Shown piece after piece: positions 33,126 to 60,765 of a stretch of 64,000 bases of DNA (the first letter of the stretch is position 1; each line of letters begins with the position of its first letter). The translations under genes and the position numbers were made by a program. The notes beneath the pieces were generated by a model. That model did not search any database and was not told the DNA's origin. It was given only the letters and a program-made list of their open reading frames with translations. Origin of the DNA: Lachnospiraceae bacterium AC2028 (lineage in GTDB: Bacteria; Bacillota; Clostridia; Lachnospirales; Lachnospiraceae); the NCBI GenBank assembly GCA_000702685.1, contig JNJD01000009.1:1-64000 (forward strand), written 5' to 3'.

Positions 33126-33156
33126 CACCCGGGAATCCCTCCCGGGTGTTTTTATG
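33126..33156 (+). terminator. terminator, left copy of a 31-bp direct repeat
   Basis: The stem CACCCGGGA pairs with TCCCGGGTG (9 bp), followed by five T's. The 31 bases 33126-33156 recur identically at 35203-35233. Confidence 0.92.
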
Positions 33157-33170
33157 CCTGAATCGGGTGC

Positions 33171-33256
33171 TTGTCTTGTGAATAAGACAAAAACAGGCCA
33201 ATATTGTCTTGCACACAAGACAAAAATAAGGTAATATTGTCTTGCAGACAAGACAA
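33171..33256 (+). repeat. three palindromic operators at exact 33-bp spacing
   Basis: The inverted repeat TTGTCTTG-N4-CAAGACAA occurs at 33171-33190 (one mismatch in the right arm), 33204-33223 and 33237-33256. The starts are exactly 33 bases apart, about three helical turns. The third copy runs straight into TATACT (33257-33262), a likely -10 of the ATPase gene, so a bound protein should block transcription. No regulator gene adjoins. Confidence 0.85.
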
Positions 33257-34838: not shown

Positions 34839-35183
34839 ATGGATTCCTTAATGGAGTATAAGGGCTATCACGCAAAGATCGATTTTGATAATGACGATGA
34901 CATCTTTGTGGGGAGGGTTATAGGAATAAACGATTCCATTGGTTTTCACGGTAAATCAGTGCGTGAATTGACATTGGCTTTTCATGACGCTGTAGATAAC
35001 TACCTGGAGTATTGTAAACAGGCCGGTAAAGTTCCCGAAAAAGAATACAAAGGTTCGTTCAATGTGCGTATTAAGCCCGAACAACACAAGAAGATAGCTC
35101 TTCATGCTGCTAATGAGGGAATTACGATAAATCAATTCGTATCCCGTGCTATAGATGATGAACTGGAGCTATTGGAAGGATAA
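34839..35183 (+). CDS. orphan HicB-family antitoxin
   Basis: A 114-residue protein with a HicB RNase-H-like N-domain (YKGYHAKIDFDNDDDIFVGRV ... FHDAVDNYLEYC) and a C-terminal ribbon-helix-helix (FNVRIKPEQHKKIALHAANE). HicB normally neutralises the HicA mRNase. No hicA-like ORF with its typical dsRBD-like motif is present within 300 bases on either side, so this is an orphan or has lost its toxin. Confidence 0.88.
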   Translation: MDSLMEYKGYHAKIDFDNDDDIFVGRVIGINDSIGFHGKSVRELTLAFHDAVDNYLEYCKQAGKVPEKEYKGSFNVRIKPEQHKKIALHAANEGITINQFVSRAIDDELELLEG

Positions 35184-35202: not shown

Positions 35203-35233
35203 CACCCGGGAATCCCTCCCGGGTGTTTTTATG
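35203..35233 (+). terminator. terminator, right copy of a 31-bp direct repeat
   Basis: Identical over 31 bases to 33126-33156, including stem, loop and T run. It terminates hicB transcription. Confidence 0.92.
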
Positions 35234-37258: not shown

Positions 37259-37286
37259 TTGCAAAGGCCCTTAATAGCGATATAAT
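37259..37286 (+). promoter_or_regulatory. promoter of the GNAT remnant unit
   Basis: TTGCAA (37259-37264), 16-base spacer, TATAAT (37281-37286). The sequence TTAATAGCGATATAATATAA is shared with the promoter of the intact copy at about 60.07 kb. Confidence 0.65.
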
Positions 37287-37321
37287 ATAAATGTAGTAGT
37301 TTTCGTAAAAGGAAAAAAGGA

Positions 37322-37431
37322 AATTCCCCGTTGTGAAAAACAGCGGGGAATTAAGCCTGTACATATACTTTCTTTTCCCGGAGATAGGAAAGAGATTTAG
37401 ATTCCGGCTATGCCGGGGAAAGAGAGCGATT
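37322..37431 (+). promoter_or_regulatory. conserved structured leader RNA, copy A
   Basis: A 13-bp hairpin (37322-37334 with 37340-37352) is followed by ATTAAG-like spacing and a block at 37363-37393 identical to copy B at 60151-60181. Then comes ATTCCGG-N-TATGCCGGG, which can pair either locally or with the CTTTTCCCGG segment before it. The structure ends at the ribosome site. Hairpin 1 differs in sequence but keeps its pairing in copy B. Confidence 0.7.
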
Positions 37432-37750
37432 ATGATTTGCGTCACGATTGATGAATTGGTTCCCTGTCTTAAAGACGCTGTAACAGGAGAAACCGTAGAA
37501 ACAGAAGTTATTCGCATAAAGCGAAAATCATTCCTTTCAAAATTCAATAAAAAGACCGGATGGTATGTAAATTGGATTGATTTGCTGGAAAAGAATGAGA
37601 TTTATGCACTCGTTCTCAAGGGAACTGTGGATATCCAGGGGTTAGTCGCTGTAGAAAACAACCCTGATTATAAAGCAGCTTATATTTGATGAAGCTGCAA
37701 AGCGTATTCAGGAGGTGTATGACTATGAATGGACAGATGAAGAACTATAA
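37432..37750 (+). pseudogene. internally deleted GNAT-like gene (paralogue of 60.2 kb gene)
   Basis: The first 85 codons (MICVTIDELVPCLKDAVTGE...) match the start of the intact gene at 60220. The frame then ends in TGA at 37687. In another frame, from 37685, the sequence reads FDEAAKRIQEVYDYEWTDEEL, which resembles the C-terminal end of the intact protein. So the acetyl-CoA-binding middle of about 80 codons has been lost, with a frameshift at the junction. The leader and promoter remain intact. Confidence 0.75.
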
Positions 37751-37904
37751 GAATTACAAAGAATCCCTGAATCGCATGCAGGAGCCAACAGTTCCCAAAG
37801 CAAAGATTGATATGCGGGGAGCGATTAAGTATGCTCAGGAAAAAGGGATTCCGGTAGAAGAATTATCAAGAGATGAAAAGAATCGTTTTATACAATATCT
37901 TTGA
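37725..37904 (+). CDS. small protein partner of the GNAT unit, copy A (59 aa)
   Basis: A 59-residue basic protein. Its second half, KIDMRGAIKYAQEKGIPVEE followed by LSRDEKNRFIQYL, matches in pattern the small protein after the intact GNAT gene (LDLPALSQYIVESGKTFEELSEEEVSKFVF). The ATG follows GGAGGTG at seven bases and overlaps the end of the GNAT remnant. It may be functional although its partner is broken. Its role is unknown; the tight pairing suggests an antidote or co-factor (inference). Confidence 0.6.
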   Translation: MNGQMKNYKNYKESLNRMQEPTVPKAKIDMRGAIKYAQEKGIPVEELSRDEKNRFIQYL

Positions 37905-39573: not shown

Positions 39574-42549
39574 ATGATCGAGGATCTTCGTAGAGGATTT
39601 GAAACGGCGTTTATTGACGGATCTGTTGTTTCTTCTGAATCTTTCAGACCTCAATTTGTTTCCAACAATTACAAAGAGGGTAAAAAAGTACTTTCATCTA
39701 TAGAGGATGAGCTTTTAGCGTGCGATGAATTCAAGATCAGCGTTGCCTTTATTACTCTTAGTGGAATCACTCCGCTTCTCCAGACACTTAAAGAACTGGA
39801 AAGGAAAAACATCCCCGGAAAAATCCTTACTACTAATTATCTGAATTTCAGTGAACCTAAGGCTCTGGAAAAGCTTCATTCATTAAAGAATGTTGAAATA
39901 AAGATGTTTGATTCTGAAAACTCCGGTGAAGGTTTTCATACAAAAGGATATATCTTCAGAAAAGAAGAGATATATAGAATTATAATCGGCAGTTCCAATA
40001 TGACCGGTAATGCACTCAAGCATAATTATGAGTGGAACACCAAGATAGTATCAACAACAGAAGGCGAAATCTCAAAAAACATAATAGAAGAATTTGATCG
40101 TTTATGGGCATCAAGATATTCGGAAAACTACGAAGAATTCATTTCTGAATATCGCGAGAGATATCGCATCATAAAACATCAAAGAGAAATTGCGAAAAGC
40201 GAAGAGCTTGTTTCTCTGGATAATTTCAAACTGCAACCTAACAGTATGCAGGTAGGTTTTATTGCGAATCTGAGAAGGATTATAGAAACCGGAGAGAACA
40301 GGGCATTACTGATCTCGGCAACCGGAACGGGAAAAACATATGCCTCCGCATTCGCAATGAGAGAACTTGGCTTCAAAAGAGTTCTGTTTCTGGTTCATCG
40401 CGGACAACTTGCACGTCAGTCCAAGAAATCATATGAAAAAGTATTCAGTAAATCCGTATCTATGGGCTTGGTCGGAGCCGGATATAGCGATTATGATGCA
40501 GATTACATATTTGCTACTGTTCAGACACTGAGCCGTGATGAACATCTGCTTCAGTATGCATCAGATCATTTTGATGCCATATGCCTTGATGAGGCACATC
40601 ACGTTCCGGCGGATACTTATCAGAAAGTAATGAAGCATTTCACGCCCAAATTATGGCTGGGAATGACCGCAACTCCAGATAAGAGGGATGATAACATAGA
40701 GGGAAGAAACATATACGAACTCTTTGATTATCAGATAGCCTATGAAATCAGACTTCAGCAGGCAATGGAAGAGAATCTCCTTTGCCCTTTCCATTATTTT
40801 GGAATAACTGACCTTTCGATAATAGGTGACGATAAAAACCGTGATTTCAGTGTTCTGACATGTGATGAGAGAGTAAAGCACATTGTAGAACAGGCAAATT
40901 ATTATGGATATAGCGGGGATAGGGTTAAAGGACTTATCTTTTGTAGCAGTATAAAAGAATCTGAAGTATTATCTGAGAAATTGAATCATACAGTTAATCC
41001 TGCAACCGGAAGATTCTATAGAACGATTGCATTGAATGGAAGTGCATCTGAGGAAGAGAGAACCCAGGCGTTTGAACGGTTGGTGGCAGATGATAAAGAA
41101 ATGGATTCGCAGCAGGAAATCTCAAATCATTTGGATTATATACTGTCTGTAGAAATCTTGAATGAAGGCGTAGATATTATAGAGGTCAATCAGGTAATCA
41201 TGCTTCGCCCTACGCAGTCACCGATTGTGTTTATTCAGCAACTTGGAAGAGGGCTTCGTAAAGCGGACGGAAAAGAATATGTTGTCATTCTCGATTTCAT
41301 CGGTAACTACAATAATAACTTTATGATTCCTATCGCTCTTTCGGGTGATCGGACGTATAACAAAGACAATATAAGAAGATTTGTGCTGGAAGGTGGACGT
41401 GTTATTCCCGGCGTATCCACGATACATTTTGATGAGATAAGCAGAAAGAGAATATTTGCGTCTGTTGATAATGCAAATTTCAGTGATGTAAAGCTTATAC
41501 GTGAGAACTACACAAATCTCAAGAATAAACTTGGAAGAATTCCCGCACTTAAAGATTTCGATCTCTATGGAGAGATGGATGTCCTCAGAATTTTCGATAA
41601 TAACAGTCTTGGATCATATTATAAATTCCTTGTGAAATATGAACCCGAGTATAAAATTCATTTGTCTGAGGATGAAGAAAAAGTAATAGAGTTTATTTCT
41701 AAAAAGCTTGCAAGCGGCAAAAGAATACAGGAACTTCAATTGTTCAGAAGGCTTATTGCATATGCTCAGGGTTTCTCACGAATAGGGCTTTTTAAAGGCC
41801 TTGCGGAAGATCTGAAATCATACAATAAGACTATGAGTGATGATCAGAGAGACAACATTGCCAATGTGATGACAAATGCTTTCCCGTCCGGTTCGAATAA
41901 AAAGACTTACGAACAATGCGTCTTTATTGAGAAAGATGCGGATGACTATATACCGTCTAAATCATTCATGGAAATGCTCTCAAATGAGGATTTCCGTATG
42001 GTTTTATCTGAGTTGATAGATTTTGGAATAAGCAGATACGAAAGAGATTATAGTAATTGCTATAAAGATACGGATTTTGTTTTGTATCAGAAATATACTT
42101 ATGAAGATGTTTGCAGATTGCTGAACTGGGAAAGCAATGAAGTCCCTTTAAACATTGGTGGATACAAATTTGATAAGAAGACCAAGACTTTCCCTGTCTT
42201 TATCAATTATGACAAATCTGATGATATAAGTGATACCACAAAGTATGAAGATCATTTTGTTAGTAATCGGCTGCTGATAGCGATTTCCAAATCCGGAAGA
42301 AGCATGGACTCGGAAGATGTACAGAATTTCCTCAGAGCAAAGGAAAGAGGAATTCGTGTTGAATTGTTTGTGCGTAAGAACAAGGATGATAAGATCTCCA
42401 AAGAGTTTTATTATCTTGGTTCAATGAGCGCAAGCGGACGAGCTGAAGAGTTCACCATGGCTAATACGGATAAATCAGCTGTAGAGATCGAGTGGGTATT
42501 GGATCAGCCAGTAAGGGATGATATATACGAATATATTGTAAGCGCATAA
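39574..42549 (+). CDS. PLD-nuclease/superfamily 2 helicase with DUF3427
   Basis: A 991-residue multidomain protein. The N-terminal phospholipase-D-like domain has GFHTKGYIF (H122, K124) and SSNMTG; it is a candidate nuclease. The SF2 helicase follows: Walker A SATGTGKT near 249, DEAH near 338, GMTATP, and motif VI QQLGRGLRKADG near 552. DUF3427 fills the C-terminal third. A NUDIX gene follows by 16 bases. This PLD-DEAH-DUF3427 type is found in defence-like settings, so foreign-DNA restriction is plausible but not shown. Confidence 0.9.
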   Translation: MIEDLRRGFETAFIDGSVVSSESFRPQFVSNNYKEGKKVLSSIEDELLACDEFKISVAFITLSGITPLLQTLKELERKNIPGKILTTNYLNFSEPKALEKLHSLKNVEIKMFDSENSGEGFHTKGYIFRKEEIYRIIIGSSNMTGNALKHNYEWNTKIVSTTEGEISKNIIEEFDRLWASRYSENYEEFISEYRERYRIIKHQREIAKSEELVSLDNFKLQPNSMQVGFIANLRRIIETGENRALLISATGTGKTYASAFAMRELGFKRVLFLVHRGQLARQSKKSYEKVFSKSVSMGLVGAGYSDYDADYIFATVQTLSRDEHLLQYASDHFDAICLDEAHHVPADTYQKVMKHFTPKLWLGMTATPDKRDDNIEGRNIYELFDYQIAYEIRLQQAMEENLLCPFHYFGITDLSIIGDDKNRDFSVLTCDERVKHIVEQANYYGYSGDRVKGLIFCSSIKESEVLSEKLNHTVNPATGRFYRTIALNGSASEEERTQAFERLVADDKEMDSQQEISNHLDYILSVEILNEGVDIIEVNQVIMLRPTQSPIVFIQQLGRGLRKADGKEYVVILDFIGNYNNNFMIPIALSGDRTYNKDNIRRFVLEGGRVIPGVSTIHFDEISRKRIFASVDNANFSDVKLIRENYTNLKNKLGRIPALKDFDLYGEMDVLRIFDNNSLGSYYKFLVKYEPEYKIHLSEDEEKVIEFISKKLASGKRIQELQLFRRLIAYAQGFSRIGLFKGLAEDLKSYNKTMSDDQRDNIANVMTNAFPSGSNKKTYEQCVFIEKDADDYIPSKSFMEMLSNEDFRMVLSELIDFGISRYERDYSNCYKDTDFVLYQKYTYEDVCRLLNWESNEVPLNIGGYKFDKKTKTFPVFINYDKSDDISDTTKYEDHFVSNRLLIAISKSGRSMDSEDVQNFLRAKERGIRVELFVRKNKDDKISKEFYYLGSMSASGRAEEFTMANTDKSAVEIEWVLDQPVRDDIYEYIVSA

Positions 42550-60023: not shown

Positions 60024-60054
60024 GAATTAAATAGGCTGAGTCTAAATCACAAAT

Positions 60055-60082
60055 ATACAAAGACCGTTAATAGCGATATAAT
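60055..60082 (+). promoter_or_regulatory. promoter of the intact GNAT unit
   Basis: ATACAA (60055-60060, weak -35), 16-base spacer, TATAAT (60077-60082). The block GTTAATAGCGATATAAT is nearly the same as in copy A at 37.27 kb. Confidence 0.6.
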
Positions 60083-60114
60083 ATAAACAGAGGATAGTTG
60101 TTTTCGGAGGAATC

Positions 60115-60219
60115 ACCTCGATGTTTATAACATCGGGGTATTAAGACTATATATACTTTCTTTTCCCGGAGATAGGAAAGAATTTTAATTCCGGTTATGC
60201 CGGGAAAGGAAAGGTTAAT
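60115..60219 (+). promoter_or_regulatory. conserved structured leader RNA, copy B
   Basis: Hairpin 1 is an 11-bp stem (60115-60125 with 60129-60139, loop TAT) whose sequence differs from copy A, though both stay paired. The 60151-60181 block is identical to 37363-37393. CTTTTCCCGG (60160-60169) can pair with CCGGGAAAGG (60200-60209), next to the ribosome site. TTCCGG/CCGGGAA is the alternative local pairing. Confidence 0.72.
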
Positions 60220-60765
60220 ATGATTTGTATTGATATTGACGAACTGACTCATTGCCTTCGGAATCTAAAAACAGGAGAACTTATAGATACCGAGATCAGA
60301 GCTCTCTTTTCTAAAGAGGATCTGAAGTGCTATACCAAAAGAGATTGGTATGTGAATTGGAGTAAATTACTTCAAAGCGGGCATGAGATTTATGGGCTTT
60401 ATGTAAAAGGGGATAAAGCCGTTCAGGGGCTTGTTGCATTAAAGGCTATGCCCGAGTTGAAATCTGTCTATATAGCATGGATGGTTGCTTCTCCGCACAA
60501 TAATAGGGAAAAGACAGATAATCCTGTCTATTCCGGTGTCGGTGGTCATTTGTTTGCTTTGGCTATTCAAAGATCTTTGGAGTGTGGTTTTGGAGGTCAT
60601 ATATATGGTTATGCCAAAAACGAAGCAGCTAAAGACAGATTCATAAATAATCATGGTGCAGTATATATAGGAGTGTTGCATCCTTTTCACATTGAAATCT
60701 CGGGTATAGCAGCTCGGAAAATTTGGAGGGAATACAATTATGACTTCTTTAAAGAGAAAACTTGA
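60220..60765 (+). CDS. GNAT-fold acetyltransferase-like protein
   Basis: A 181-residue protein beginning MICIDIDELTHCLRNLKTGE. The middle has LKSVYIAWMVASPHN as the central strand, and GVGGHLFALAIQRSLECGFGGH is the acetyl-CoA pyrophosphate loop and following helix of GNAT enzymes; NEAAKDRFINNHGA follows. No substrate can be named. It overlaps the small ORF by 26 bases and follows the structured leader. A broken copy lies at 37.4 kb. A toxin-like GNAT role is possible but not supported by a known family. Confidence 0.78.
   Translation: MICIDIDELTHCLRNLKTGELIDTEIRALFSKEDLKCYTKRDWYVNWSKLLQSGHEIYGLYVKGDKAVQGLVALKAMPELKSVYIAWMVASPHNNREKTDNPVYSGVGGHLFALAIQRSLECGFGGHIYGYAKNEAAKDRFINNHGAVYIGVLHPFHIEISGIAARKIWREYNYDFFKEKT

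What the first reader, a model, noticed from the sequence alone, without database searches (positions are those of the whole stretch)
37322..37431. Conserved, covarying leader RNA shared by two GNAT units (copy A)
Two loci 22.8 kb apart share a promoter core, a hairpin, a 31-base identical block and a final pairing that involves the ribosome site. In copy A hairpin 1 is 13 bp (37322-37352); in copy B it has other bases but is still fully paired, so the pairing is kept while the sequence changes. That is the mark of a functional RNA. The block can pair in two exclusive ways near the start codon. I know no riboswitch with this pattern.
Basis: partly seen in the sequence, partly recalled or inferred. 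Interest (0 to 1): 0.82.

Follow-up and report, generated by a model that had tools for sequence, protein, structure and literature searches.

The report
RNA leader shared by toxin-antitoxin operons
A conserved RNA leader that appears to hide the ribosome-binding site sits in front of several unrelated toxin-antitoxin-like gene pairs in one group of rumen bacteria, which suggests these pairs are controlled at translation rather than, as is usual, by a DNA-binding antitoxin.

Summary
Copies A (37293-37431) and B (60089-60219) share a sigma-70-like promoter, hairpin 1, a 31-base identical block, and a 14-bp pairing of that block with the Shine-Dalgarno (SD) strand. In 31 genomes of the genus a pattern found copy C, before another GNAT-like/small-protein pair, and a covariance model found copy D, before a ParE/RelE-type toxin (PF05016) with a small partner. 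So the leader is not tied to the GNAT-like gene but shared by unrelated toxin-antitoxin-like operons. The promoter motif led to four leaders of a second, similar type, three of them before hicBA. Searches outside the genus (395 family genomes, viral contigs, one pattern over genome contigs, Rfam) gave nothing convincing. The three leader-bearing HicB lack the C-terminal DNA-binding-like tail that the ten leaderless HicB examined carry.

Best reading: an SD-occluding leader controlling toxin-antitoxin operons at translation, in place of transcriptional autorepression. The opening signal is unknown; in type 1 a start codon in hairpin 1 lies exactly 99 nt (in frame) before the gene in 4 of 4, a hint of ribosome gating as in E. 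coli toiL-topAI. Covariation is real but modest, Pfam does not confirm 'GNAT', and copy A's gene is truncated.

The parts
37259..37286 (+). Promoter of copy A (TTGCAA, 16-17 nt, AATAGCGA-TATAAT)
   Evidence: motif TTGCAAAN7AATRRCGATATAATG matches all 8 leaders with 0-3 mismatches
37293..37431 (+). Leader RNA copy A (type 1); 5' end inferred as about 7 nt after the -10 box
37318..37358 (+). Basal helix AGG/CCT (37318-37320 with 37356-37358) around hairpin 1
37322..37352 (+). Hairpin 1, 13 bp
37333..37335 (+). GTG at the hairpin-1 apex, 99 nt before the main start, in frame and open into the gene
37368..37381 (+). Anti-SD strand CTTTCTTTTCCCGG, invariant in copies A-D
37413..37426 (+). SD strand CCGGGGAAAGAGAG, pairs 14/14 with the anti-SD strand
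37404..37416 (+). Possible hairpin 3 CCGGC-TAT-GCCGG, exclusive with the SD stem
   Evidence: read from the sequence
37432..37689 (+). Truncated GNAT-like gene (85 codons; internal deletion, C-terminal part out of frame)
37725..37904 (+). Small partner protein, 59 aa, SD-like AGGAGGTG at 37710
60054..60082 (+). Promoter of copy B
60089..60219 (+). Leader RNA copy B (type 1); 5' end inferred
60111..60142 (+). Hairpin 1 of copy B, one bulged C
60121..60144 (+). Possible upstream ORF MFITSGY* (ATG 99 nt before the main start; GGAGG upstream)
60156..60169 (+). Anti-SD strand of copy B
60200..60213 (+). SD strand CCGGGAAAGGAAAG of copy B
60220..60765 (+). Full-length GNAT-like gene, 181 aa
60740..60928 (+). 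Small partner protein, 62 aa, overlapping the gene end

Best explanation
It is a cis-acting translational leader of toxin-antitoxin-like operons. The mRNA starts about 120-155 nt before the first gene and folds a variable hairpin 1; the invariant block then pairs with the SD strand, so the first gene is translated poorly by default. The block can instead pair locally, and hairpin 3 can form, which leaves the SD free. The same promoter-plus-leader cassette is attached to different toxin families, and in the hicBA case to antitoxins without a DNA-binding-like tail, so it probably replaces the usual transcriptional autorepression. Most likely trigger for type 1: ribosomes that start in hairpin 1 and slow down over the block, so that translation stress (including the toxins' own activity) opens the operon. 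Shown by computation: conservation, predicted SD occlusion, gene context, restriction to one genus in what was searched. Inferred: repression in vivo, the switch, the trigger, and that types 1 and 2 are one family.
For: Model R1 (built from A, B, C, which match by construction) finds D at E 5.9e-12; the other 7 of 11 matches in 31 genus genomes have E 0.05-0.87 and look like chance. D precedes ParE_toxin PF05016, 33.6 bits. The promoter pattern gives 18 matches (reversed control: 1); 10 of 18 lie at toxin-antitoxin-like units or relics of them (contexts), including hicBA leaders E, G, H. SD unpaired probability is 0.00-0.11 in A-D against 0.40-0.55 with shuffled upstream parts. Combined z over 8 leaders is -5.1 (5' part) and -8.2 (SD part). 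Type 2 basal helix: 3 of 5 pairs change on both sides. Leader-bearing HicB are 69-101 aa against 128-147 aa in 10 leaderless hicAB. In type 1, ATG/GTG at exactly -99 in 4 of 4; 0 of 5000 shuffle sets have a common offset. A modelled ribosome over the block raises SD openness to at most 0.52 (A), 0.74 (C) and 0.98 (D).
Against: No expression or probing data. The type 1 SD stem has no two-sided changes, and SD purines are expected anyway. For the uORF trigger: B's uORF stops after 7 codons and opens the SD to at most 0.21 in the model; in type 2 the modelled ribosome hardly changes it; the -99 frame is absent in type 2. SD occlusion in type 2 E and H is no better than with shuffled upstream parts, F and G are borderline (0.10, 0.085). 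The 5' part alone is not significant in C, F, G and H (z +0.54, -0.78, -0.11, -1.14), nor the SD part in C and E (-1.51, -1.61), and related sequences are not independent. The type 2 hairpin-1 stem is only 70% paired on the alignment. In type 2 the first gene is the antitoxin, in type 1 the toxin-like gene. Only 3 of 22 hicA matches and 3 of 4 GNAT-like genes in the genus have the leader.
Confidence: 0.6

Rival explanations
1. Autogenous control by a protein of the operon: the antitoxin, the toxin or their complex binds hairpin 1 or the block and stabilises or melts the SD stem, as ribosomal-protein leaders do.
For: The leaders travel with toxin-antitoxin-like operons; leader-bearing HicB lack the DNA-binding-like tail, so another feedback route would be needed. 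HicA is an RNA-acting toxin (recalled).
Against: The same type 1 block is kept before unrelated proteins (GNAT-like and ParE/RelE-like), which would have to recognise the same RNA. The partners of A-D match no family above its cut-off.
Confidence: 0.2
2. Type I-like control laid over a protein toxin-antitoxin pair: a standby site upstream of an occluded SD, possibly targeted by an antisense RNA, as in tisB and timP.
For: Conserved 5' segment TAGTWGTT (type 1) or GGATTATTTTGGC (type 2), a 5' structure and an occluded SD resemble the tisB description (PMC7708055, abstract).
Against: No antisense gene was identified. The scans show one weak (9 of 12) minus-strand promoter-like match downstream of each leader (38078 and 60975); over both strands the A region has 6 matches against a shuffle mean of 2.9, the B region 3 against 4.3, so this is not excluded. 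Pseudoknots were not modelled.
Confidence: 0.15
3. Promoter and leader are passengers: the module was copied as a unit between toxin-antitoxin loci and the RNA has little regulatory effect.
For: Few copies, one genus, shared promoter; two relics keep the promoter but have lost the leader (L054, L073).
Against: The type 1 core stays 71-87% identical among A, B and C while the genes behind it are 56-62% identical; hairpin 1 (A-B) and the type 2 basal helix change bases but keep pairing.
Confidence: 0.1
4. A metabolite riboswitch of an undescribed class.
For: Exclusive pairings around the SD and an invariant block; no Rfam family matches.
Against: The context is toxin-antitoxin-like genes of different families, not a pathway; the invariant block is explained in part by pairing; none of the 8 leaders precedes a transporter or biosynthetic gene.
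Confidence: 0.06

Closest known systems
toiL leader of topAI-yjhQ in Escherichia coli (PMC12121999; abstract, sections 7 and 8, and part 1 of 2 of section 11 read)
   Same: A toxin-antitoxin operon whose first gene has its ribosome-binding site occluded by leader pairing; an upstream start codon (139 nt before the gene there, 99 nt in type 1 here); published model of translation stress opening the leader.
   Different: toiL is an 8-codon ORF with a conserved peptide, and its own sequence pairs with the ribosome-binding site. Here peptide and uORF length vary, and the leader is shared by several toxin families. No sequence relation was tested.
tisB and timP type I toxin mRNAs (PMC7708055: abstract; PMC11228461: abstract and start of the introduction)
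   Same: Structured 5' leader, sequestered ribosome-binding site, importance of far-upstream elements.
   Different: Those use an antisense RNA antitoxin; here the partner appears to be a small protein, and no antisense RNA was identified.
axe-txe two-codon minigene (PMC8708949, abstract seen)
   Same: A tiny ORF upstream influences translation of a type II toxin.
   Different: It is inside the operon; a conserved SD-occluding leader is not described in the abstract.
ToxI-like structured RNAs upstream of toxN in Clostridiales (PMC8040213, passages found by term)
   Same: A structured RNA directly upstream of a toxin gene in related bacteria.
   Different: ToxI is an RNA antitoxin of type III systems; here there is a protein partner and an SD-pairing block. 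No sequence comparison was made.
Type II toxin-antitoxin autorepression (PMC7730913, search listing with start of abstract)
   Same: Controls the same kind of operon.
   Different: It works by protein binding at a DNA operator; here an RNA leader may take that place, at least for three hicBA units.

Membership tests
Rfam families (any) | Score at or above a family gathering threshold | tested here: not met
   No match in A or B at gathering score; all weak matches far below. C-H not scanned
SD-occluding translational leader | SD strand paired in the predicted fold | tested here: met
   A-D; local SD stems also in E-H, but weaker against shuffles
SD-occluding translational leader | Pairing supported by compensatory changes in the SD stem | tested here: not met
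   Type 1: 0 of 14 pairs with two-sided change; type 2 SD stem: 1 of 7
Transcription attenuator | Terminator hairpin with U run in the leader | tested here: not met
   No terminator-like site inside leader A or B; C-H not scanned
toiL-type uORF attenuator | Start codon upstream of the occluded SD | tested here: met
   ATG/GTG in the hairpin-1 region in A-H; at -99 in A-D
toiL-type uORF attenuator | Conserved uORF peptide | tested here: not met
   Peptides and lengths differ
toiL-type uORF attenuator | Ribosome on the uORF frees the SD | tested here: inconclusive
   Model: yes for A, C, D; not for B or type 2
Type II toxin-antitoxin operon | Recognised toxin family beside a small partner | tested here: met
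   Met for D (ParE_toxin) and E, G, H (HicA); not met for the GNAT-like units A-C and pair F, which match no family above its cut-off
GNAT acetyltransferase | Pfam or solved-structure match | tested here: inconclusive

The most novel reading that the evidence does not exclude
A portable promoter-plus-RNA cassette serves as a common regulator for unrelated toxin-antitoxin operons whose antitoxins cannot bind DNA. By letting ribosomes in an upstream frame unmask the SD, it makes expression respond to translation damage, including damage done by the toxins themselves.
Probability: 0.25. Interest if true: 0.82.

Novelty: new variant of a known kind. Interest (0 to 1): 0.62.

Why it matters
Type II toxin-antitoxin operons are usually described as controlled by the antitoxin at the operator. 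A leader RNA shared by GNAT-like, ParE/RelE-like and HicBA operons would be a second, interchangeable control layer, and would suggest where to look in other genomes: operons whose antitoxin lacks a DNA-binding domain. Whether toxin-antitoxin expression senses translation directly could then be tested with a simple reporter.

Tried and rejected
Leader peptide as a general mechanism: lengths and frames are not conserved in type 2, and ribosome placement opens the SD only in A, C and D; kept only as the likeliest trigger for type 1. In-frame N-terminal extension of the gene: stops in B and C, and leaderless relatives start at or near the main ATG.

Copies outside the genus. R2 (family, 396 genomes with the window's own, strict filters): 24 matches in 22 genomes; 2 are A and B; the best of the other 22 has E 6.6e-5; I opened 14 of the 22 and none lay before a toxin-antitoxin-like unit, 8 were not opened. 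R3 (family): 3 matches (E 0.03-0.10), all opened, none convincing. R3 (genus): its 4 training leaders and 6 weak matches (E 0.19-0.81), all 6 opened. Viral contigs: five scans; over the 16 loci from the last two, R3 gave 4 matches (best E 0.015, L125, not opened) and R2 none. Genome contigs pattern scan: 2 records, one is copy C, the other (Saprospiraceae, L032) was not opened. The structure prediction had not returned at the last poll.

Literature: the paper search; no title or start of abstract in those listings announces such a leader. Most subscription papers and all bioRxiv preprints are not held.

Full report
What is in the sequence. Copy A (window 37293-37431) and copy B (60089-60219) were confirmed. 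Both follow a sigma-70-like promoter and share the core CTTTCTTTTCCCGGAGATAGGAAAGA, found only twice in the window and in the 2.77-Mb genome at up to 3 mismatches. The identical run is 31 nt. Both fold with a 14-bp stem between CTTTCTTTTCCCGG and the purine strand that holds the SD. In the 200 nt upstream of the promoter region A and B are 38% identical, and the first 255 nt of the genes are 56% identical, while the core is 87% identical.

More copies. Copy C was found by pattern in G001 among 193 genomes; the 29,623-base contig is that of rumen MAG RGIG8171. A model built from A, B and C was run over 31 genomes of the genus. Beside its three training copies it returned a fourth copy, D, in G018 at E 5.9e-12; the other 7 of 11 matches (E 0.05-0.87) were all opened and look like chance. 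In D the anti-SD block is again invariant, the SD strand pairs 14 of 14, and hairpin 1 has different bases. In C 13 of 14 pair.

Gene context. C precedes a full-length GNAT-like gene and a 60-aa partner. D precedes an 89-aa protein that matches ParE_toxin PF05016 (33.6 bits, cut-off 23) and, below its cut-off, RelE_StbE (22 bits, cut-off 27.9), followed by a small protein (71 aa as scanned) without a family. So the leader is not a GNAT leader but a leader of two-gene toxin-antitoxin-like units. Copy A's GNAT-like gene is cut to 85 codons by an internal deletion, with the C-terminal part out of frame; its 59-aa partner and the leader look intact. The four proteins of A and B match nothing in PADLOC and no Pfam or NCBIfam family above its cut-off.

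Second type. The promoter pattern TTGCAAAN7AATRRCGATATAATG (up to 3 mismatches) gave 18 matches in 12 of 31 genus genomes, against 1 for the reversed control. Of these 18, 8 are the leaders A-H, 2 are relics (L059, the same place as L054: second gene of the F pair; L073: what looks like a hicB remnant), and 8 lie elsewhere. By mismatches, 5 of 5 matches with 0-1 (4 leaders, 1 relic), 3 of 5 with 2 (2 leaders, 1 relic) and 2 of 8 with 3 (2 leaders) are at toxin-antitoxin-like units; the contexts were read by eye. E, G and H precede hicB-hicA; F precedes an unrecognised pair. Type 2 leaders share GGATTATTTTGGC, a basal helix around hairpin 1, and CCTTTCC...GGAAAGG over the SD. On alignment A9 the basal helix has two-sided changes in 3 of 5 pairs; the hairpin-1 stem there has none and is 70% paired. 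That types 1 and 2 are one family is my inference from promoter and layout; no model joins them.

Distribution. GNAT-like relatives occur in 22 of 396 family genomes, the window's own included. Of the 21 others I read the upstream stretch in 17 and saw no leader; the other 4 are a match at a contig start and three partial matches. None of the 21 is among the matches of R2 in the family scan, if that scan drew the same 396 genomes. In the genus, 3 of 4 GNAT-like genes have the leader. HicA matches number 22 in 16 of 31 genus genomes, 21 of them over the cut-off, and R3 finds the type 2 leader at 3 of the 22 loci.

A contrast in the antitoxins. Of 13 hicA loci whose gene order I examined (of 22), the 3 with leader are hicB-first with HicB of 69, 72 and 86-101 aa (the last depending on the start chosen). 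The 10 without leader are hicA-first with HicB of 128-147 aa and a C-terminal tail of the form VKKTLSIPAWLNEAA...FSQVLQEAL. I read that tail as ribbon-helix-helix (recalled); of 6 such proteins scanned, 4 have a weak, sub-threshold CcdA match there. The small partners of A-D have no DNA-binding family match above its cut-off.

Structure evidence. SD unpaired probability is 0.00, 0.04, 0.11 and 0.00 in A-D, against shuffled means of 0.40-0.55 (fraction of 200 shuffles as low: 0, 0.010, 0.030, 0). In E-H it is 0.30, 0.12, 0.34 and 0.36, against 0.31, 0.31, 0.61 and 0.34 (fractions 0.535, 0.100, 0.085, 0.465), so the case for type 2 rests on its local stems rather than on this test. Combined z is -5.1 for the 5' part and -8.2 for the SD part; alone, C, F, G and H are not significant in the 5' part and C and E not in the SD part, and the sequences are related. 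Copy C as a whole folds no better than its shuffles (z -0.80). Opening the SD costs 10.6-17.2 kcal/mol in type 1 and 6.4-10.3 in type 2. The type 1 SD stem has 4 pairs that vary on one side and none on both.

A hint of ribosome gating. In A-D an ATG or GTG lies in hairpin 1 at exactly -99, in frame, although indels differ; 0 of 5000 shuffle sets have any common offset between -75 and -130. The four are related sequences and the test was made after seeing the pattern, so this is not a true probability. The frame runs into the gene in A and D, stops just before it in C, and stops after 7 codons in B. A modelled ribosome over the block raises SD openness to at most 0.52, 0.74 and 0.98 in A, C and D, but to 0.21 in B, and hardly changes it in type 2. 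I therefore rate the trigger as unproven.

Comparison. The nearest published mechanism found is toiL-topAI-yjhQ: leader pairing is proposed to hide the topAI ribosome-binding site, and ribosomes stalled in toiL to open it. tisB and timP (abstracts) show occluded toxin ribosome-binding sites with far-upstream elements. A survey of human microbiomes reports structured RNAs upstream of toxN, read there as possible ToxI (passages). No title or start of abstract listed announces one leader shared by several type II families.

Verdict. A real, conserved leader of toxin-antitoxin-like operons with a predicted SD-occluding fold, found so far in 6 of 31 genomes of one rumen Lachnospiraceae genus (types 1 and 2 together): a new variant of a known kind. 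Function in vivo is inferred.

Noticed in passing
34839-35183: HicB-family protein (PF05534, 74.9 bits); by eye I saw no HicA beside it in the ORF list, neighbours were not scanned.
   Followed up: partly
33171-33236: Two tandem inverted-repeat units (TTGTCTTG...CAAGACAA-like) just before an AAA_14/DUF4143 ATPase gene, possibly an operator.
   Followed up: no
33126-33156 and 35203-35233: Identical 31-nt terminator-like hairpin CACCCGGGAATCCCTCCCGGGTG with T run, 2.1 kb apart.
   Followed up: no
39574-42549: 991-aa protein with PLD, ResIII helicase and DUF3427 domains, 1.7 kb after the copy A unit; looks defence- or repair-related.
   Followed up: partly
37432-37689: GNAT-like gene of copy A has lost its central part, including the YxGVGxHL motif, while its partner stays open, as in relics of toxin-antitoxin units.
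   Followed up: partly
L073 (G007) and L054 (G018): Relics: the shared promoter remains before what looks like a hicB remnant and before the second gene of the F pair, with the leader lost.
   Followed up: partly
L005-L014, L016-L018, L020, L021, L027, L029, L030: In 18 of 18 GNAT-like relatives examined a small ORF (45-110 aa, permissive criterion) overlaps or follows the gene end: an unrecognised two-gene unit across Lachnospiraceae.
   Followed up: partly
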